Origin: Myxococcales bacterium
Lineage (GTDB): Bacteria > Myxococcota_A > Polyangia > Haliangiales > Haliangiaceae
Direction of reading: 5' to 3'
DNA: 64,000 bases
NCBI GenBank assembly: GCA_028287135.1
Contig: JAQBQE010000002.1
Location: forward strand, 186,001 to 250,000
Shown: positions 28,927 through 37,101 of the stretch, in pieces
How the letters are laid out: each line of letters opens with the position of its first letter
Numbering within the stretch: position 1 is the stretch's first letter
Position numbers and translations under genes: made by a program
The notes under the pieces: model-generated
What the model saw: only the letters and a program-made list of their open reading frames with translations
Database searches by the model: none
What the model was told of the DNA's origin: nothing

Positions 28927-30531
28927 ATGTCTCAGGTCGGGAACCTGGCCGCGTGGCTCATCGAGGGCGCGCTGGCGAACGGTGCGGGTCCGCGGGGAGC
29001 ACTGCGCGAAGGCGGTCGCGTCTGGACCTATGACGAGCTCGCGGCCAACGTGGCGAAGCTGTCCGCGGCCCTGCGCACCCTGAAGCTGCAGCGCGGCGAG
29101 CGGGTCCTGATCCTGATGCGCGACACGCTCGAAGCGGCGACCGCGATCCTCGGCGTGATCCACGCGGGCGCCGTGGCGGTGCCGGTGTCCGAGCTGTCGA
29201 CCCCTGATGATGTCGGTGCGTACGTCGTCCACGCCGGCGCGGTGATCGCGATCGTCGATGACGAGCACGAGGCGGTCGTCGATGCCGTGCGCAGCGAGAC
29301 CCCGACCCTGCGCGAGGTCATCTGCGTCGACTCGAAGCTGCAGAGCAGCCACGACTTCCAGAAGATCGTCGACGCTGCGACGCCCCAGCCGGCGGTCGCG
29401 ATGGGGAGCGATGATGTCAGCATGCTGCTCTACTCGGCGGGCTCTGGCCCGGGGGAGCTGCGGGCAGTTCCGCACTGCCAGCGGACGATCGCGGCCGCGC
29501 ATGATTCGTTTGCGCGCGAGCTGCTCGGGCTGACGTCCACGGATCGCGTGCTGTCGGTCGGTCGGCTGTCGACGGCGTATGGCCTCGGCGCCGGCCTGCT
29601 GCTGCCGATGGTCGCGCAGGCAGAGGCGCTGCTGTTCCCGGAGCAGCCGCAGAGCAAGCTGATCTTCGAGGCGCTCGAGAGCTATCAGCCGACGATCCTG
29701 TTCGCGACGCCGTCGGTCTACGCCCAGCTCGCCCACGATGCAGAGGCGCAGAAGATCACGAAGCCACTCGCGACGCTGCGCCATGCCGTCGCCGGTGCCG
29801 AGGGCATGCCCGAGCGCCTGATCCCGCGGATTCGTTCGGTGCTCGGGACCGAGGTCGTTGTCGGCTATGGCCTGACCGAGATCTTCCAGTTCGCGCTCGC
29901 CGGAAAGAGCAACGATCCGGGGGCGCGGCCGGGTGTGTGCGGCAAGCCGCTACAGGGTGTCCAGGTCCGGCTCGTCGACGAGGATGGCGATCCGGTCGGA
30001 GTCGACGAGATCGGGACGCTCGAGCTGCAGTGCGGCTCGCTGTTCCGCGGCTACTGGGGCGGCAGTTCCATCGATGCCGGGGCGGAGATCGATCTGCGGC
30101 CCGACGGCTGGTTCACGACGCGCGACCGCTTCATGGTCGATCGCGAGGGCTACTACCATCACTGCGGCCGGGTCGACGATCTGTTCAAGGTCGGCGGCAA
30201 GTGGGTCTCGCCCAGCGAGGTCGAGCGGGCACTGACGGCGCACGAGGCCGTGTGGGAAGCGGCGGTGATCGGCGCCGACGATGACGAGGGGCTGATGAAG
30301 CCGTTCGCGTTCGTCGTCACCAACGTCGGCCAGGAGGGCGGTCCCAAGCTCGAGGCCGAGCTCCGCGAGTACGTGAAGAACTCGCTCGCGCCGTACAAGT
30401 ATCCGCGCTGGATCGAGTTCGTCGAGACGCTGCCGCGCGGACCGGGTGGCAAGCTGCTGCGCTACAAGCTGCGGACACCGAAGCAGCGCCGTCGCCACGC
30501 CGAGACCGGTCAGTACAAGCCGGAGAAGTGA
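28927..30531 (+). CDS. AMP-forming acyl-CoA ligase-like protein with altered P-loop
   Basis: A 534-residue member of the acyl-adenylate (ANL) superfamily, closest in layout to benzoate-CoA-ligase-type enzymes: FATPSVYAQLAHDAEA, VAGAEGMPERL, GYGLTEIFQFAL, DGWFTTRDRFMVDREGYYHH, CGRVDDLFKVGGKWVSPSEV and the C-terminal catalytic Lys in LPRGPGGKLLRYKL. The ATP-gripping loop at residues ~168-183 reads LLYSAGSGPGELRAVPH, in place of the usual YSSGSTGxPKGVxH: Thr and the P-K pair are lost. Activity may therefore be reduced or changed. It is followed by the T3SS-like ATPase neighbourhood after seven bases. Start ATG 28927. Confidence 0.85.
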   Translation: MSQVGNLAAWLIEGALANGAGPRGALREGGRVWTYDELAANVAKLSAALRTLKLQRGERVLILMRDTLEAATAILGVIHAGAVAVPVSELSTPDDVGAYVVHAGAVIAIVDDEHEAVVDAVRSETPTLREVICVDSKLQSSHDFQKIVDAATPQPAVAMGSDDVSMLLYSAGSGPGELRAVPHCQRTIAAAHDSFARELLGLTSTDRVLSVGRLSTAYGLGAGLLLPMVAQAEALLFPEQPQSKLIFEALESYQPTILFATPSVYAQLAHDAEAQKITKPLATLRHAVAGAEGMPERLIPRIRSVLGTEVVVGYGLTEIFQFALAGKSNDPGARPGVCGKPLQGVQVRLVDEDGDPVGVDEIGTLELQCGSLFRGYWGGSSIDAGAEIDLRPDGWFTTRDRFMVDREGYYHHCGRVDDLFKVGGKWVSPSEVERALTAHEAVWEAAVIGADDDEGLMKPFAFVVTNVGQEGGPKLEAELREYVKNSLAPYKYPRWIEFVETLPRGPGGKLLRYKLRTPKQRRRHAETGQYKPEK

Positions 30532-30538
30532 TCGCTCC

Positions 30539-31306
30539 GTGATCGGAGAGGCGCTCGCGACGACGATCGCCACGGCCGATCGGACCGTGCTCGATCGGAT
30601 CCGCGGTCCGATCGGCGACGCCGCGCGGGCCGCGTTCGACCGGCTCGCCGGGCAGACCGCCGAGCAACGACGCGAGCAGCGGATCACCTGGTGCGCGGCC
30701 GCGCGTGCGCCCGTCCCGCCCGGGATCCGCGGCGTCGACCCGAGCTGGATCGAGGCGGCGCTCGCGGATCTGCCCGCGCGTGCGCGCGACGCCGTCGCGG
30801 AAGGCGCATCGACCGCGGTCGACGTCTGGCTCGCGCGCTGGGCATGCGCGGAGATTCCGCCGATGCCGTCGATCGATCCGCTGCTGATCCGGCCGCGGAC
30901 GATCGTCGATCTCCCACGCCTCGCGGCGCCCGCGCTCCAGGCGTGGCTCGAGGACGTCGGCGCCGACCAGCTCGCGTTCGCCCTCGGACCCCATGCACCG
31001 CCGGCGGCGGCGGTGTTCGGCGACCGGGTGCTCGCAGCGGTCGCCCGCGTGTCCTCGCCCCCGCGTGCAGGATCCCTCGGCCAGCGCCGGGCGGCGATCG
31101 AGCGAGCCCGTGTCGAGCCGGGACCCGGAGCGCTCGCGATCATCGGCGCACGTGCAATGGCTCCCCACACCGATCCGGTGCTCCGCCGGCAGCTCGTGCT
31201 GCGACTGCCCCGGGCGATCGGGATCGGCCTGGCCCGGGAGCTGCGGAGCCATGCGCGCGCTCCCGTCGAGCACACCGCCACCTCGGCGGCGTTGTTCGCC
31301 TCCTGA
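30539..31306 (+). CDS. Unknown Ala/Arg-rich helical protein upstream of the FliI/SctN-type ATPase
   Basis: A 255-residue protein starting at GTG 30539, seven bases after the ligase stop. It is almost entirely helical, rich in Ala and Arg, without a signal or membrane segment. Segments such as SWIEAALADLPARARDAVAE and LQAWLEDVGADQLAFALG have the spacing of FliG-like or SctK-like cytosolic components of flagellar/injectisome export gates, but the similarity is only by eye. Its position before a lipoprotein and an export-type ATPase gene supports such a role. I cannot name it. Confidence 0.6.
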   Translation: MIGEALATTIATADRTVLDRIRGPIGDAARAAFDRLAGQTAEQRREQRITWCAAARAPVPPGIRGVDPSWIEAALADLPARARDAVAEGASTAVDVWLARWACAEIPPMPSIDPLLIRPRTIVDLPRLAAPALQAWLEDVGADQLAFALGPHAPPAAAVFGDRVLAAVARVSSPPRAGSLGQRRAAIERARVEPGPGALAIIGARAMAPHTDPVLRRQLVLRLPRAIGIGLARELRSHARAPVEHTATSAALFAS

Positions 31307-31352
31307 CACATGGCCGTTGCAGCGCGAGCCGCGGTCGATTACCACTGATCGG

Positions 31353-32222
31353 ATGATGAGGACGCCGTGGCTCTGCCTCGTGATGCTCTCCGCGTGTGCG
31401 AACAACGTCCCGCAGGATCGAGCGACCGGTCCTGACGGACGGCTCAAGGGCGCCCAGCGGATCGCGCTCGCGGAAGGCGAGGGCCGGGTGCGCGGCATCG
31501 TCACCTATCCCGGTGGCGATCGGGTGGACTGGAAGCTGATCGAGCTGCCGGCGGGAAAGCGCGGAAAGCTCGACCTCCAGATGTCGTGGACGACGCCACG
31601 CCCGGGTCTCAAGGTCGCGTTCGACGTGTTCGATCAGTGGAACACGCCGGTGATCAAGGCCTCGACGAGGTCGCGCGGTCGTTCGCGCAACGCTTCGATC
31701 ACCGGCGCGATGGGGAAGTACTTCGTGCGGATCTATGCGCCCGGGCGGGGCGACGCCGGCGCGTACAACCTGACCGCTGCGTTTCTCGAGGATCCGCCGG
31801 AGGACGGCGGGCTCGACGTGCTGAAGCTGCCGATCCCGGATCCGCCGCGGCTGCCCGATGTCCCGGTCGCGGCCGATCCGGTCGCAACGCCCACGCCGCC
31901 GCCGGTGGCGCCGCCGCCGGTCACGCCCCCGACACCGCCGATCACCCCACCGGTGACCCCGGCCGTGGTCGCCGCTCCGCTGACCGCGCGCGTCCTCAAG
32001 ATCGAGGTCACGTCGAGCTACGTCGACATCACCGTCAGCGCTGGCTCGGAGTTCGGTGTCGCGAAGACCTGGAAGGCGAGCGTGTTGACCGGGCAGACCA
32101 CCACGCCGCTGTCGGGAGGCGCCGCGACCGTCGTTCGCGTCGACAAGCGCACCACCGTCCTCCGGGTCAACCTGAGCGCCGCGACGATCCAGGCCAACAA
32201 CATGGTGCGGCTCTCGCCCTGA
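31353..32222 (+). CDS. Lipoprotein with proline-rich linker in the export-ATPase locus
   Basis: A 289-residue lipoprotein: signal MMRTPWLCLVMLSAC with the acylated Cys at ~15, an N-terminal beta domain (residues ~40-150, ending KYFVRIYAPGRGDAGAYNLT) resembling bacterial pre-peptidase C-terminal domains, a Pro/Thr-rich linker (~165-210), and a C-terminal beta domain (VLKIEVTSSYVDITVSAGSE, VRVDKRTTVLRVNL). It would be anchored to a membrane in the periplasm. ATGs at 31353 and 31356 are equivalent starts. It lies 13 bases before the ATPase gene, so the two are probably co-transcribed. Exact role unknown. Confidence 0.78.
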   Translation: MMRTPWLCLVMLSACANNVPQDRATGPDGRLKGAQRIALAEGEGRVRGIVTYPGGDRVDWKLIELPAGKRGKLDLQMSWTTPRPGLKVAFDVFDQWNTPVIKASTRSRGRSRNASITGAMGKYFVRIYAPGRGDAGAYNLTAAFLEDPPEDGGLDVLKLPIPDPPRLPDVPVAADPVATPTPPPVAPPPVTPPTPPITPPVTPAVVAAPLTARVLKIEVTSSYVDITVSAGSEFGVAKTWKASVLTGQTTTPLSGGAATVVRVDKRTTVLRVNLSAATIQANNMVRLSP

Positions 32223-32235
32223 TATCATCGCGCCC

Positions 32236-33732
32236 GTGAAATCCGGGCGTGTGATCGGGGGCGACGAGCACGAGGCTCGCACCACCGCCGAGCAGATCCT
32301 TTCCGAGGCGCGCGCCGAGGCGGCGAAGCTGCGCGCCAGTGCCGCCGCGGAGGCCGACCGCGTGCGCCTCGATGCTCGGCGCGATGCCGAGCGCCACGCT
32401 GCGGCGGCGGCTCACGATCGGGCCGGGACCCCGCAGCGACCGGCCTCGGATTCGACGCCCACGGTCTCGTTTCCCGCGGTCGGCGCGGGGGCGGTCGACG
32501 AGGTGGTCGGGCTGGTGCTGCGGGCGAACATCCACGGCGTCGCGCTCGGCGAGGTCGTCAAGATCGACCGCCGCGATCGCTCGCCCCTGTCGGCCGAGGT
32601 CGTGGGATTTCGCGGCGAGCAAGCCGTGCTGCTCCCGCTCGGTGATCTCGCGGGGGTCGCACCCGCGAGCACGGTCTGGCGCACGGGCGCTGCGCTCTCG
32701 ATCCAGTGCGGGGACGATCTGCTCGGTCGCGTCCTCGACGGAACCGGCGCACCGATGGACGGTGGAGCACCGCTGACCGGCGAGGCCTGGAGCGTGGATC
32801 GCGCGGCACCACCAGCGCTCGATCGCCCGCCGATCACGGCGCCGCTCGCCACCGGCGTGCGCGTGCTCGACACCATGCTCACGCTCGGGCGAGGCCAGCG
32901 CGTCGGGCTGTTCGCCGCGGCGGGCGTCGGCAAGTCGACGCTGCTCGGCCAGATCGCACGTGGATCGAGCGCCGACGTGATCGTGCTGTGCCTCGTCGGC
33001 GAACGTGGTCGAGAGCTCGCCGAGATCCTCGGTGACGAGCTCGCGCCGGCGCGTGCGCGGACCGTCGTCGTGTGCGCGACGAGCGATGCACCGGCGCTCG
33101 TGCGGTTGCGTGCGGTCCATGTCGCGACCGCGATCGCCGAATGGTTCCGCGATCGCCGGGGAGCATCCGTGCTCCTGCTCTGCGATTCGCTCACGCGCGT
33201 TGCCCGGGCGCAGCGCGAGGTCGGGCTGTCGGCCGGCGAACCGGCCGCCCGTCACGGCTATCCACCGAGCGTGTTCGCGCTCCTGCCGCGGCTGATCGAG
33301 CGCGCTGGCGCCACGCGCGACGGCGTGATCACCGCGATCTACACGGTGCTCGTCGCCGGCAACGACATGGACGAGCCGATCGCCGACGAGGTGCGCGGGC
33401 TGGTCGACGGTCACATCGTGCTCGACCGGCGGCTCGCGCAGCGCGGCCACTTCCCGCCGATCGACGTGGTGGGGAGTGCGTCGCGCCTGATGCAGCGGGT
33501 GATCGATCCCGGTCACGCCGATGCTGCGGCCCTGCTGCGCGCGAAGCTCGCGGTCTACGAGGAGCACCGGGATCTGATCACGCTCGGCGCGTACCAGGCA
33601 GGTCGCGATCGGACGATCGACGCGGCGATCGCGGCGTACCCCGGGATCGAGCAGCTCGTGCGCCAGCGGCGGGACGAGGCGGCGGACTGGGACGCGTCGG
33701 TGGCCCGGCTCCTGGCGCTCGCGGCACGCTGA
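32236..33732 (+). CDS. FliI/SctN-type export ATPase with FliH/SctL-like N-terminal coiled coil
   Basis: A 498-residue protein. Residues ~10-60 form an Ala/Glu/Arg coiled coil (ARTTAEQILSEARAEAAKLR and following) like the N-terminus of FliH/SctL stator proteins or F-ATPase b subunits. From ~80 it is a complete type III secretion/flagellar ATPase: LLGRVLDGTGAPMDGG, P-loop in FAAAGVGKSTLLGQIARG, LVGERGRELAEIL, Walker B VLLLCDSLTR, and GHIVLDRRLAQRGHFPPIDV followed by SASRLM. It starts at GTG 32236. No flagellar or injectisome structural genes are visible within the window, so the ATPase and its two upstream partners are either a split locus or a reduced export device. Confidence 0.88.
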   Translation: MKSGRVIGGDEHEARTTAEQILSEARAEAAKLRASAAAEADRVRLDARRDAERHAAAAAHDRAGTPQRPASDSTPTVSFPAVGAGAVDEVVGLVLRANIHGVALGEVVKIDRRDRSPLSAEVVGFRGEQAVLLPLGDLAGVAPASTVWRTGAALSIQCGDDLLGRVLDGTGAPMDGGAPLTGEAWSVDRAAPPALDRPPITAPLATGVRVLDTMLTLGRGQRVGLFAAAGVGKSTLLGQIARGSSADVIVLCLVGERGRELAEILGDELAPARARTVVVCATSDAPALVRLRAVHVATAIAEWFRDRRGASVLLLCDSLTRVARAQREVGLSAGEPAARHGYPPSVFALLPRLIERAGATRDGVITAIYTVLVAGNDMDEPIADEVRGLVDGHIVLDRRLAQRGHFPPIDVVGSASRLMQRVIDPGHADAAALLRAKLAVYEEHRDLITLGAYQAGRDRTIDAAIAAYPGIEQLVRQRRDEAADWDASVARLLALAAR

Positions 33733-33823: not shown

Positions 33824-34005
33824 ATAGCGCACCAGGCACCTCACACCAGCCGTCGCGAATGAGAGGTACACTACAACCCGCACACCATTTCACGTGGTTG
33901 CGCAGGCGATCGTTCCATGCCGACTCGCACCTACCATGGCGCAGGCCTTGCTGTTCTTGCCGATTGCCTATGCAGCGGCGCCGCCCATCCAAGATCACGA
34001 ACCCC

Positions 34006-37000
34006 ATGACTCCCATCGGCCTGGTGCCGTTCGTCGGCAGGCAAGCGGAGCTGGCTGAGCTCAAGCAACACCTCGCGGTCGTCTCGCTGGTGTCGCTGCA
34101 CGGTGCGCTCGGTTCCGGCAAGACCCGTCTTGTCAGTGAGCTCGCGCCCGGGCTCGGCGCTCCCTGCACGGTGATCGACTGTCATCCCGGTGATCGCGCA
34201 TCCGCGTTGCGCGCCCGCGCCGAACGCGCGCTGCGCTGCGTGCCGGGCACGTTGACCCAGACGCTCGTCCAGCAGGCGCGCGTGCTCGTGATCGACGACA
34301 TCCAGCACCTCCGCACCGACGAGGCGACCAGCCTGCTGTCGCCGCTGCTCCTCGGTCAGACCGCGCTCGGTCGCGTGATCGTCGTCGGTCGCGATCCGCT
34401 CGCTGCTGCGGTCGGCGCCCAGATCGCCGAGGTCGAGCTCCAGGGCCTCGATGCCGACGCTGGCGGCCAGATGTGGGCCAGCCTCGAAGAGACCTATGGC
34501 GAGGTGCCCGGGTTCGATGCCGCATTTGCACGTACGCGCGGTGTACCGCTCGGGCTTCGCCGCGAGTTCGCGCGCGCGCGGTTCGGTGCCGGCGCGTGGG
34601 ACCTGACGACGCTCGATGCGCCGGCTCGCGCCGCACTCGAGGCCCTCGCGATCCTGCGTGCGCCGGTGGCTCCGGCCGCGATCTCTGCACTCGCACCGGG
34701 TGTCGATATCGAGGCTGCGCTGACCGGCCTCGTCGCTCGCCAGCTCGCCGACGGCGTCGGTGATGGCCGGATCGTCGTGCACGAGGTCGTCCGCGTCGAC
34801 GTCCTCGCGCAGATGGCCCCCGAGACCAAGATCCGCCTGTCGAGCGCGGCCGCCGAGCTGGTCGCCAGCACGGGTGCGCTCGCGAGCGGTCCTCGGCTCG
34901 CCTGGCACGCCGGTGACGATGGTGCGTTCGGCGCAATGGACCAGATCACGCGCGTTCGCGAAGTGGTGTGGCACTGGATCGCCGCCGGTGATCGCGACCG
35001 CGCCGCGGACGCACTGCTCGCGGATCGTGATCTCGCCGCGCGCAGCGGTGGGGCAGGCGAGTTCGAGTCGCTGCTCGACGCCTTCGGCGAGCGCCCGCGT
35101 CGTCGCACCAACAGTCATTCCGATGTCGCGCAGACCGGCGCGGCCGAGCTCGTGCGTGCCCCGCTCGATCCCGAGCGCGCGCGTGCCCTGGCGGCCCTGC
35201 GCGTCGAGATCGCCGTCCGTGGTGGCCGGTACACCGAGGCATTCGAGCGTGCGAGCGCTGCGCCCGGAGCGGTGTCGCCGCATCTTCATGCCGAGCTGAC
35301 GCTCGCCTCTGGCGATGTCGCGTCGGCACGCCGCGCGCTGACCGGGCTGCTCGGCGCCACCGATCAGAGTGAACGCGCGCGCGCGATCGCGCTGCTCACC
35401 GAGCTCGAGCTCCTCGCCGGCAAGCCCGAGGCAGCCGCCGCGCACCTCGCGTCCGCTGGCGATCTCGCCGGTGCCGATCCGCTCGCGCGCGCGCGGATCC
35501 ACCTCGCGACCGCGCGTGTCGACGAGTACATGGGTCGCGTTGCCGCGATGCGCTCCGCGCTCGCGCGTGCACACGGGGCGTGCAAGAGTGCCCCGGCATG
35601 CCTCGAGGCCAGTGAGCTGTCGGCGATCGTCGACGCGCGTCGCGCGATCGGGCTCGCCCGCGAAGGCCGGCTCGTCGAGGCCGCGACCGCGCTCGATGCC
35701 GCCGATGCCGCCGCGCGCGATCTCGACGCCGTCGCGGTCTCCGATGAAGTCCTCGCCGCGCGTGCCCTCGTCGCGCGTCGCCGTGGTGACAGCACGCTGT
35801 CGGCCTCTCTCCTCCAGGACGTCGTGCGTGCGCGCCGCGAGCGCGGTGACGAGCTGGGTGCCCTGCGCGCCGAGCTCGATCTCGCCGAGCTCGAGATCGT
35901 TCGCGGTCAGCCCGCGGTCGCCTCCGAGCTCGCGAGCGCCGCCCTGGCGTCGAGTGTCCGTCGCGAGCTCGCTCATCTCGCGGCACGCGGCAACGCCGTG
36001 GTCGCCGCGATCGATCTCCTCGAGATGCGGCTCGATGCAGCGCTGCCGCGGCTCGAGCAGCTCTACGGTCAGCCCACGCTCGATGCGGCCTCCGCCGCGA
36101 CCGTCGCCGTCCTGCTCGCCAGCGCACGTGCCCAGAGCGGCCAGCGTGCCGGCGCCGTCGAGCTCGCCCAGAATGCAGGCGCCGAGGCGCGTGACGAGCT
36201 CGATCGCAAGCTCGCCGGGGCCGAGGTGGCGCTCGCCGCCGGTGATGTCCAGCTCGCTCTCGAGCTCGCACGCGACACCGCGATTCTCGCGGAGCGCTCG
36301 CATCGCACGATCGAGCTCGCGTCCGCGCTCGTGATCGTCGCGCGTCTCGAGCTGGCGCGTGGTGATCGCGGCAATGCGCGCGCAGCTGCGACCCGCGCCG
36401 CCCGCGAGGCGCACTCCGCCGGGCTCGTCCGTGCTCGCGTCCACGCGCTGCTCGCCCTCGCGGCGCTCGCACGCGACGACGACGATGCACCGTCCGCCGT
36501 GTCGTACGCGCGCGATGCTGCCGAGCTCGCGATGACCGCCGGGCTCCCGGTCGAGCGGCTCGTCGCGCACGCCGCGCTCGATGCGATCTCCGGTGCCGAG
36601 GCGGTCGCCGATCCGTCGGCGCCGAGCGCCGCGACGATGGCTCCGACCGCGATCGAGGGCGCTGCCCGCCTGCTCACGGATCTCGGTCTCACCGCACAGC
36701 GACCCTTCCGCGTGATCGACGCCGAGGGCGTGCCGAGCGATGTTGCCGATGCCAACCCCGAGGTCCTGCGCCTGCCGAACCGCGCGCTCGCCGTCGATGG
36801 CGTTCGCGAGGTGATCTGGCGCCACGGCGTGGAGCTCGCCGACCTCCGCCGCCGCAGCCTGCTCAAGCGCCTGCTGTTCCTGTTCGCCTCGGCACCGGGC
36901 AAGGTGTTCTCGAAGGAAGCGATCGTCCAGGCGGTGTGGAACGTCGAGTACCACCCGCTGCGCCACGACGCCGCGCTGTTCACGAACATCATGCGAATCC

Positions 37001-37101
37001 GCCGCCTCCTCGGCGAGGACGGTTCCGAGATCATCCGGGTGACCGAGGACGGTTATCGCTTCGTGCCGCCGCGTGACTTTCTGTTCGTCATTCCGAGGTG
37101 A
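34006..37101 (+). CDS. STAND-type ATPase with TPR repeats and C-terminal OmpR-type winged helix
   Basis: A 1031-residue regulator. Residues ~8-45 hold FVGRQAELAEL and Walker A GALGSGKT (33-40); Walker B is VLVIDDIQH (93-101). The nucleotide-binding part runs to ~330, followed by about 550 residues of Ala-rich helical TPR-like repeats. The last ~95 residues are an OmpR/PhoB-type winged helix (LLKRLLFLFASAPGKVFSKE, NIMRIRRLLGEDGSEIIRVT, EDGYRFVPP). This is the layout of signal-integrating transcription regulators of the MalT/SARP-like STAND class, with the DNA-binding part at the C-terminus. Start ATG 34006 gives the normal N-terminus; 33970 is an alternative. Its stop overlaps the next gene by four bases. 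Confidence 0.85.
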   Translation: MTPIGLVPFVGRQAELAELKQHLAVVSLVSLHGALGSGKTRLVSELAPGLGAPCTVIDCHPGDRASALRARAERALRCVPGTLTQTLVQQARVLVIDDIQHLRTDEATSLLSPLLLGQTALGRVIVVGRDPLAAAVGAQIAEVELQGLDADAGGQMWASLEETYGEVPGFDAAFARTRGVPLGLRREFARARFGAGAWDLTTLDAPARAALEALAILRAPVAPAAISALAPGVDIEAALTGLVARQLADGVGDGRIVVHEVVRVDVLAQMAPETKIRLSSAAAELVASTGALASGPRLAWHAGDDGAFGAMDQITRVREVVWHWIAAGDRDRAADALLADRDLAARSGGAGEFESLLDAFGERPRRRTNSHSDVAQTGAAELVRAPLDPERARALAALRVEIAVRGGRYTEAFERASAAPGAVSPHLHAELTLASGDVASARRALTGLLGATDQSERARAIALLTELELLAGKPEAAAAHLASAGDLAGADPLARARIHLATARVDEYMGRVAAMRSALARAHGACKSAPACLEASELSAIVDARRAIGLAREGRLVEAATALDAADAAARDLDAVAVSDEVLAARALVARRRGDSTLSASLLQDVVRARRERGDELGALRAELDLAELEIVRGQPAVASELASAALASSVRRELAHLAARGNAVVAAIDLLEMRLDAALPRLEQLYGQPTLDAASAATVAVLLASARAQSGQRAGAVELAQNAGAEARDELDRKLAGAEVALAAGDVQLALELARDTAILAERSHRTIELASALVIVARLELARGDRGNARAAATRAAREAHSAGLVRARVHALLALAALARDDDDAPSAVSYARDAAELAMTAGLPVERLVAHAALDAISGAEAVADPSAPSAATMAPTAIEGAARLLTDLGLTAQRPFRVIDAEGVPSDVADANPEVLRLPNRALAVDGVREVIWRHGVELADLRRRSLLKRLLFLFASAPGKVFSKEAIVQAVWNVEYHPLRHDAALFTNIMRIRRLLGEDGSEIIRVTEDGYRFVPPRDFLFVIPR

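What the first reader, a model, noticed from the sequence alone, without database searches (positions are those of the whole stretch)
30539..33732. Orphan flagellar/injectisome-type ATPase fused to a stator-like coiled coil
The ATPase has an N-terminal FliH/SctL-like segment fused to a complete FliI/SctN domain, and is preceded by a helical unknown protein and a lipoprotein. No ring, export-gate, needle or flagellin genes are in the window. It could be one island of a split type III-like apparatus or a reduced export machine.
Basis: partly seen in the sequence, partly recalled or inferred. Interest (0 to 1): 0.65.

Follow-up and report, generated by a model that had tools for sequence, protein, structure and literature searches.

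The report
Stator-ATPase fusion in scattered secretion machine
In one family of predatory-type soil bacteria (Kofleriaceae, myxobacteria) the motor enzyme of a needle-less protein-export machine has swallowed the tail of its own anchoring protein, whose other half appears to be gone, and the gene beside it looks like a link between the flagellar rotor protein FliG and the injectisome adaptor SctK.

Summary
32236-33732 is a FliI/SctN-family ATPase with an ~80-residue N-terminal extension. The ATPase groups with the non-flagellar T3SS ATPases of myxobacteria, including Myxococcus xanthus, not with FliI or F1. The rest of the machine lies elsewhere in the same (59.5% complete) genome: SctV alone on C57; FliO-SctR-S-T and SctU on C36. 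In neighbouring families the same locus reads SctK-SctL-SctN. In the window's family SctL is missing and its N-terminus (SctQ-binding peptide plus coil) is fused to SctN: 20 of 20 family genomes with this SctN, 0 of 95 other ATPases checked. No SctL C-domain was found in 30 family genomes. The helical protein at 30539 is SctK by position, weakly resembles PscK in fold, and its family profile matches FliG in the PDB (E 3e-4). SctU has lost the NPTH self-cleavage motif (10 of 10) and SctJ is truncated. Best reading: a reduced, scattered, needle-less T3SS in which each ATPase subunit carries its own spoke. The binding partner and function are inferred, not shown. The lipoprotein is a lineage-limited insertion, not part of the core.

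The parts
30539..31306 (+). SctK/FliG-like sorting-platform adaptor (255 aa, all helical)
   Evidence: Sits directly upstream of SctN (or SctL-SctN) in genus, family, order and class relatives. Iterative HMM from this protein reaches the M. xanthus SctK-position protein (3e-30) and then true FliG (2.5e-5), no reversed decoy listed. Profile A2 against PDB: 7 of 8 hits FliG, best 3.3e-4. AlphaFold pLDDT 83; best fold PscK, Z 7.5 over 151 residues.
31353..32222 (+). putative lipoprotein inserted between SctK and SctN; lineage-limited, probably not part of the machine
   Evidence: Homologues at this place only in 3 other genus genomes (G003, G005, G008); no Pfam/NCBIfam match; the family and order relatives read lack it here.
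32236..33732 (+). SctL(N-terminus)-SctN fusion ATPase, whole gene
   Evidence: TIGR01026 497 bits; clade of 19 fused ATPases SH-aLRT 99 inside the myxobacterial non-flagellar SctN clade; N-terminal box in 20 of 20 family members.
32248..32277 (+). conserved N-terminal box R-V-I-G-G-D-E-H-E-A (residues 5-14), proposed SctQ-binding peptide (APAR-like)
   Evidence: R[VIL][IL]x[GA]xxx[DE]A in 20 of 20 family members, 0 of 95 other ATPases; matches SctL N-terminus by profile-profile.
32260..32421 (+). coil from SctL (residues 9-62, one predicted helix)
   Evidence: AlphaFold H9-62, pLDDT about 81-89 for most of it; SctL model positions 9-65 match here, E 2.4e-5 genome-wide.
32422..32481 (+). disordered linker where unfused SctN carry a short N-terminal helix-like segment (presumed SctL-docking helix)
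   Evidence: pLDDT below 50 at 63-81; N-terminal comparison of fused and unfused SctN.
32854..33483 (+). ATPase nucleotide-binding domain (residues 207-416), P-loop intact
   Evidence: PF00006 6.4e-78; P-loop residues G230, G232, K233, S234, T235 invariant or nearly so in alignment A1.
33505..33711 (+). T3SS ATPase C-terminal domain (residues 424-492)
   Evidence: PF18269 2.5e-20.
33970..37101 (+). AAA + repeat + winged-helix (Trans_reg_C) regulator, conserved downstream neighbour
   Evidence: Pfam AAA_22 and PF00486; homologues downstream of SctN in family and order genomes, including unfused ones L023 and L024.
28927..30531 (+). AMP-binding ligase, conserved upstream neighbour that anchors the locus comparison
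   Evidence: PF00501; homologues at the same place in other fetched loci of the family and order.

Best explanation
[quoted passage not shown] 30539-31306 encodes the SctK/FliG-like adaptor. 32236-33732 encodes SctN with the N-terminus of SctL (SctQ-binding peptide plus coil) fused to its front; the SctL C-domain, which normally clamps the ATPase, appears to be gone. Proposed working: the export gate (SctR-S-T-U-V, with FliO) sits in the inner membrane; SctK and SctQ form the pods; each ATPase subunit is held to a pod by its own covalent N-terminal tether instead of by an SctL dimer; ATP hydrolysis unfolds or releases substrates into the gate. Because SctU lacks the NPTH self-cleavage motif and SctJ is shortened, there is probably no needle-building phase and no substrate switch. 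Shown: identities, fusion, gene scattering, NPTH loss, SctJ truncation, purifying selection. Inferred: SctQ binding by the fused peptide, 1:1 spoke-to-ATPase ratio, export function, substrates.
For: SctN identity and phylogeny with myxobacterial non-flagellar SctN, apart from flagellar FliI of the same genomes. Machine parts in own genome: SctV, FliO/SctR/S/T and SctU. Fusion: the extension profile over 1205 called proteins lists, besides the fused ATPases, only proteins in SctL position; hhalign to SctL prob 95.7, E 1e-8; the SctL model hits the family's ATPase genes only at its positions about 8-72; same locus with a separate SctL in sister families. SctL C-domain not found in 30 family genomes. 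SctK. NPTH loss in 10 of 10 family SctU; SctJ short and divergent. dN/dS 0.22-0.42 for N, V, R, S, T, U and FliO, no internal stops. SctL/FliH N-terminal peptide binds SctQ/FliM-FliN SPOA domains (PMC4443714, passages).
Against: The own genome is 59.5% complete; SctQ and SctJ were not found in it. SctK evolves fast (dN/dS 0.46-0.61) and its PscK fold match (Z 7.5; Foldseek E 1.1) is below the tool's caution level for helical proteins. The box is similar to, but not shown to be, a SPOA-binding peptide. Loss of NPTH and shortening of SctJ also fit slow decay. Secretin, SctI, SctF, SctO and SctD were not searched. In the SctL search at most 42 candidates per genome were scored, so a very divergent SctL C-domain could be missed.
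Confidence: 0.75

Rival explanations
1. Decaying relic: the scattered genes are what remains of a T3SS that is being lost, and the fusion is a by-product of deletion of most of sctL.
For: NPTH lost, SctJ truncated, SctL C-domain not found, dN/dS of the T3SS genes somewhat above housekeeping genes. Some family genomes have no such SctN at all (10 of 30, some of them incomplete).
Against: Same fused architecture in 20 genomes of several genera, conserved P-loop and box, dN/dS 0.22-0.42 without stops in seven genes at three loci, SctV of the non-flagellar type in all 20 of these genomes.
Confidence: 0.12
2. The N-terminal extension is an unrelated coiled-coil tail; the true SctL is elsewhere and too divergent to see.
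For: The region is alanine-rich and coiled; the extension profile also hits six short frames in other families that I did not assign to SctL, at 3e-4 to 4e-10.
Against: Non-coil box shared with SctL N-termini; SctL missing from exactly the locus where the extension appears; the presumed docking segment of SctN is replaced by a disordered linker.
Confidence: 0.08
3. The ATPase has left the secretion machine and works alone (for example as a chaperone-release or regulatory ATPase) with its SctK-like neighbour.
For: No other recognised T3SS gene lies beside it in the stretch read; neighbours are metabolic and regulatory.
Against: Co-retention with SctV in 20 of 20, SctR in 14 of 16 and SctQ-type SPOA genes in 16 of 20 genomes.
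Confidence: 0.05

Closest known systems
Needleless T3SS* / 'Myxo' non-flagellar T3SS of Myxococcus xanthus
   Same: SctN in the same myxobacterial clade, SctK-like gene upstream, FliO with SctR-S-T (FliO reported for both M. xanthus systems in PMC12248157, passages), no needle genes recognised there, conserved and probably vertically inherited loci (PMC3459982 section 9; PMC12075869 passages).
   Different: M. xanthus has J-K-L-N-O-P-Q clustered and a full SctL (O and P named by position). Here genes lie at separate loci, SctL is reduced to a fused N-terminus, SctU lacks NPTH and SctJ is about 170-190 aa against 272.
Injectisome SctK-SctL-SctQ-SctN sorting platform
   Same: SctK, SctQ (in relatives), SctN and the SctL N-terminal peptide are all represented.
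   Different: No separate spoke dimer; tether covalent and very variable in length (31-133 residues from box to barrel).
Flagellar FliG-FliH-FliI
   Same: Gene order and FliG_C-like sequence of the SctK family.
   Different: ATPase is not in the FliI clade of the same genomes; FliG_N and FliG_M not detected in the window protein.
Scattered T3SS of Chlamydiales (PMC3459982, passage)
   Same: Core genes spread over several loci.
   Different: Different lineage; that passage reports scattering, not a fusion.

Membership tests
Non-flagellar T3SS, myxobacterial type | SctN-type ATPase grouping with other myxobacterial non-flagellar SctN | tested here: met
   fused clade SH-aLRT 99 within a clade (100) holding M. 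xanthus, Anaeromyxobacter and Lujinxingia SctN.
Non-flagellar T3SS, myxobacterial type | Export gate SctR, SctT, SctU, SctV in the same genome | tested here: met
   Own genome: SctV TIGR01399 579 bits, SctR NF009438 183 bits; SctU PF01312 69.6 bits, SctT PF01311 59.3 bits. SctS (89 aa) read by position between R and T and by phmmer hits to its counterparts.
Non-flagellar T3SS, myxobacterial type | SctJ inner-ring lipoprotein | tested here: inconclusive
   None in own genome. Relatives: short divergent SctJ in 13 of the 20 genomes with fused SctN, missed by PF01514 and found by a custom profile.
Non-flagellar T3SS, myxobacterial type | SctQ with SPOA domain | tested here: inconclusive
   None in own genome; SPOA hit off the flagellar contig in 16 of 20 fused genomes (neighbourhood read in G004, G005, G009, G012, G019 only).
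Non-flagellar T3SS, myxobacterial type | Full-length SctL stator | tested here: not met
   Only model positions about 8-72 at the ATPase gene or flagellar FliH; one further hit in G018 (positions 115-175) lies in a sigma-54-type regulator frame.
Non-flagellar T3SS, myxobacterial type | SctU NPTH self-cleavage motif | tested here: not met
   Absent in 10 of 10 family SctU aligned; present in 2 of 2 flagellar FlhB.
Canonical injectisome | Secretin SctC and needle SctF | not tested
   No secretin or needle search was run.
Flagellar export ATPase FliI | Groups with FliI | tested here: not met
   family FliI (L159, L160) lie in another clade.
F-type / Rho ATPases | Groups with F1 subunits or Rho | tested here: not met
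   F1 models 138-178 bits against 533 for SctN; the own-genome rows presumed F1 lie far off. Rho itself was not placed.
FliG/SctK | FliG_C-like sequence | tested here: met
   Window-family profile against PDB: FliG E 3.3e-4, 7 of 8 hits; Myxococcaceae and M. xanthus members reach Pfam FliG_C over the cut-off in 3 of 4 scanned (38.9, 37.5, 24.4 bits against 23.3; L098 below at 16.3).
FliG/SctK | FliG_N and FliG_M domains | tested here: inconclusive
   No Pfam match in the window protein at E 1; too divergent to exclude.
FliG/SctK | PscK (SctK) fold | tested here: inconclusive
   Best match by both aligners, Z 7.5, 151 residues, rmsd 4.5; next rows Z 3.8; Foldseek E only 1.1.
FliG/SctK | Gene position between SctJ and SctL/SctN | tested here: met
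   J-K-L-N in M. xanthus and Lujinxingia; K-L-N in sister families; K-N in this family. The Lujinxingia K-position protein was not reached by the iterative HMM.

The most novel reading that the evidence does not exclude
Kofleriaceae run a stator-less type III export machine: the ATPase ring is tied to the SctQ pods by covalent tethers of its own, without SctL dimers, without needle assembly and without a substrate switch. Its SctK is a living intermediate showing that injectisome SctK descends from flagellar FliG.
Probability: 0.42. Interest if true: 0.8.

Novelty: new variant of a known kind. Interest (0 to 1): 0.62.

Why it matters
SctL/FliH is treated as a separate link between pods and ATPase. 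A natural fusion that keeps only its SctQ-binding end and drops the ATPase clamp would show which half of the stator matters and fix spoke-to-ATPase stoichiometry by genetics. Whether SctK is FliG is marked 'FliG (?)' in a 2014 table (PMC4045390, passage); a 2015 paper says OrgA (SctK) lacks a clear flagellar homologue (PMC4443714, passage); the PscK fold was called unique (PMC8211105, passage). The myxobacterial family joins FliG_C sequence with SctK position and, weakly, PscK fold, which makes that question testable. The lineage also shows a T3SS losing NPTH and part of SctJ while kept under selection.

Tried and rejected
First idea, rejected by my own later test: that SctJ is lost in this family. 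PF01514 gave no second SctJ, but a profile from myxobacterial SctJ found short, divergent copies, so I report truncation, not loss.

Idea that the helical protein is SctL: rejected, since in sister families it stands upstream of a separate full SctL and its profile matches FliG, not FliH.

A SctL C-domain hit in G018 (C129:21695-21883) was followed up; it falls inside a frame that reads as a sigma-54-type regulator with an FHA-like N-terminus (read by eye, no family search), so I set it aside as unrelated.

Coupling to a Tad/Kil pilus: the Tad protein RcpC (PF16976) was found in only 4 of the 16 fused-SctN genomes among the 33 searched, and not in the own genome, so I do not claim a Tad partner. 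RcpC may not be the right marker for Kil.

The lipoprotein as a ring or pilotin part: rejected as core because it was seen at this place only in three other genus genomes.

My first regular expression for the box had one position too many and found 0 of 20; corrected. Literature: phrase search for FliH-FliI/SctL-SctN fusion, 0 papers; SctL+SctN+fusion+myxobacteria listing read, no such report seen in the listing; SctK+FliG+type III secretion from 2018, 0 papers; wider searches seen as listings only (some papers listed there were then read by passage, as cited). Subscription papers are mostly not held; I did not look up the 2022 Cell Reports paper on the M. xanthus system and know it only from citations in the papers read.
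Full report
What is there. The window is C3:186001-250000 of a 4.84 Mb, 59.5% complete genome. 32236-33732 encodes a FliI/YscN-family ATPase (TIGR01026 497 bits over a cut-off of 380; best model SctN TIGR02546, 533 bits, under its own cut-off of 605). Only three ATP-synthase-family hits exist in the assembled genome; the other two fall on very long branches, presumably F1 alpha and beta, so this is the sole SctN/FliI there. A record matching one same-genus contig (27,616 bases in both) is titled Kofleriaceae.

The rest of the machine. PF00771, PF01312 and PF00813 searches place SctV on C57 (7187-9055), SctR on C36 (2886-3638) and SctU on C36 (13502-14467). Reading C36 gives FliO (PF04347 43 bits), SctR, SctS, SctT as a run; SctU lies about 9 kb further on. 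SctV scores best with HrcV (579 bits) over FlhA (496) and SctR best with a YscR-type model. Among the 20 family genomes with the fused SctN, non-flagellar-type SctV is in 20 of 20; SctR in 14 and SctU in 11 of the 16 of them that were searched; a SPOA gene off the flagellar contig in 16 of 20. SctV, SctR-S-T and SctQ keep many of the same neighbours across species, as expected of vertical inheritance.

The fusion. In other families of the order and class the locus reads SctK, SctL (about 160-220 aa), SctN. The f3 genome G031 keeps the same AMP-ligase, coaD and aspC neighbours as the window. In the window's family SctL is missing there and SctN carries an extension of 31-133 residues from the box to the barrel. 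The evidence that the extension is SctL's N-terminus: an HMM of 15 extensions, searched over 1205 called proteins, lists besides the fused ATPases only proteins in SctL position, best 7e-8, M. xanthus 5e-5. Profile-profile comparison with SctL gives probability 95.7, E 1e-8 over 46 columns. The SctL model, run over 76 genomes, hits the family's ATPase gene only through its positions about 8-72 (G000 2.4e-5, G011, G020, G005, G003, G014). The box R[VIL][IL]x[GA]xxx[DE]A is in 20 of 20 family members and 0 of 95 other ATPases. In six-frame searches of 76 whole genomes the extension profile finds all 20 fused genes and 10 other places: 4 in SctL position (G030, G075, G044, G052) and 6 other short frames not followed up, so cross-hits to other coiled coils probably occur.

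Is the other half of SctL elsewhere? In 30 family genomes the SctL model found only those N-terminal hits, FliH on flagellar contigs, and one hit in a regulator frame. At most 42 candidates a genome were scored. In unfused SctN a short segment of the LxEALAALDxxNPLR kind precedes the barrel; in fused SctN it is replaced by alanine/proline-rich sequence, disordered in the model. That this segment docks SctL is recalled from FliI/FliH work, not tested. One member (G009) has a tether of only 31 residues but keeps the box.

The helical protein. Starting from the window protein, iterative HMM search gathered SctK-position proteins, then the M. xanthus 720-residue protein between SctJ and SctL (first E 3e-30), then two FliG proteins of other phyla (2.5e-5), with no reversed decoy listed in seven rounds. 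Those two carry all three FliG domains. M. xanthus and two of three other Myxococcaceae members scanned carry Pfam FliG_C over the cut-off. The profile of 13 members matches FliG in the PDB at 3.3e-4; 7 of 8 hits are FliG. The AlphaFold model (pLDDT 83) is closest to PscK (Z 7.5, 151 residues), with FliG at Z 3.8 and 3.5; Foldseek alone gives PscK at E 1.1. The fold evidence alone is weak; position and sequence carry the case.

Phylogeny. In a tree of 109 ATPase cores the 19 fused ones form one clade (SH-aLRT 99). They lie inside the myxobacterial non-flagellar clade (100) and away from flagellar FliI of the same genomes (98) (quick method, no bootstrap). One fusion event is the simplest reading.

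Other reductions. SctU has lost NPTH in 10 of 10 family sequences and in the f3 genome; f2 and f7 have NPDH, f4 NSEH, f8, f9 and two flagellar FlhB NPTH. SctJ in three family genomes is 168-189 aa (200 in f3) against 272 aa in M. xanthus, with matches confined to the C-terminal part of the model; PF01514 missed it. dN/dS between congeners: SctN 0.22-0.27, SctV 0.30-0.36, SctT 0.28, FliO 0.28, SctS 0.38, SctR 0.42, SctU 0.42, SctK 0.46-0.61; five comparison genes (murA, hisG, coaD, aspC and the AMP-ligase) 0.14-0.25; no internal stops. This argues against simple decay.

Mechanism. In studied systems the N-terminal peptide of SctL/FliH binds SctQ/FliM-FliN SPOA domains and is followed by a coiled coil (PMC4443714, passages). 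SctL links pods to ATPase (PMC8211105, passages). Here the same peptide and coil are attached to the ATPase itself, so each subunit should reach a pod without an SctL dimer. M. xanthus uses a needleless T3SS* in prey lysis (PMC12075869, passages), which makes predation the likeliest role, but nothing here tests function, and the Tad marker RcpC is absent from most fused genomes.

Relation to the known. The system works like the needleless T3SS*, and its parts are members of the non-flagellar T3SS families, but two usual features were tested and not met: a full SctL and the SctU NPTH motif. I therefore file it as a new variant. My searches of the held library found no report of an SctL-SctN or FliH-FliI fusion nor of a T3SS in Kofleriaceae (listing only).

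Noticed in passing
L049 6728-7186 (G000:C57), also L066, L067, L076: A gene of about 150 aa that looks like a small outer-membrane beta-barrel (by eye) follows SctV directly and is conserved beside it in other family genomes; dN/dS 0.34. A possible outer-membrane partner of the export gate.
   Followed up: partly
G034 C14:31548-31709 and C65:39881-40661: A 78-residue open frame like the SctL N-terminus (4e-10 with the extension profile) and broken SctV pieces in one order relative; looks like a T3SS being lost.
   Followed up: no
L064, L065, L069: SctQ-like genes stand next to a large (about 1360 aa) exported-looking protein, folD and parA/parB-like genes in three genomes.
   Followed up: no
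L102, L113: Polyangiaceae-type SctN genes stand alone, with neither SctK nor SctL beside them, so scattering goes beyond this family.
   Followed up: no
window 33970-37101: A large AAA/repeat/winged-helix regulator is conserved downstream of SctN in fused and unfused loci; a candidate regulator of the machine.
   Followed up: partly
L095 5055-7217: The M. xanthus SctK-position protein is 720 aa, about three times the usual size, with FliG_C near residue 150 and a long C-terminal part without a T3SS match.
   Followed up: partly
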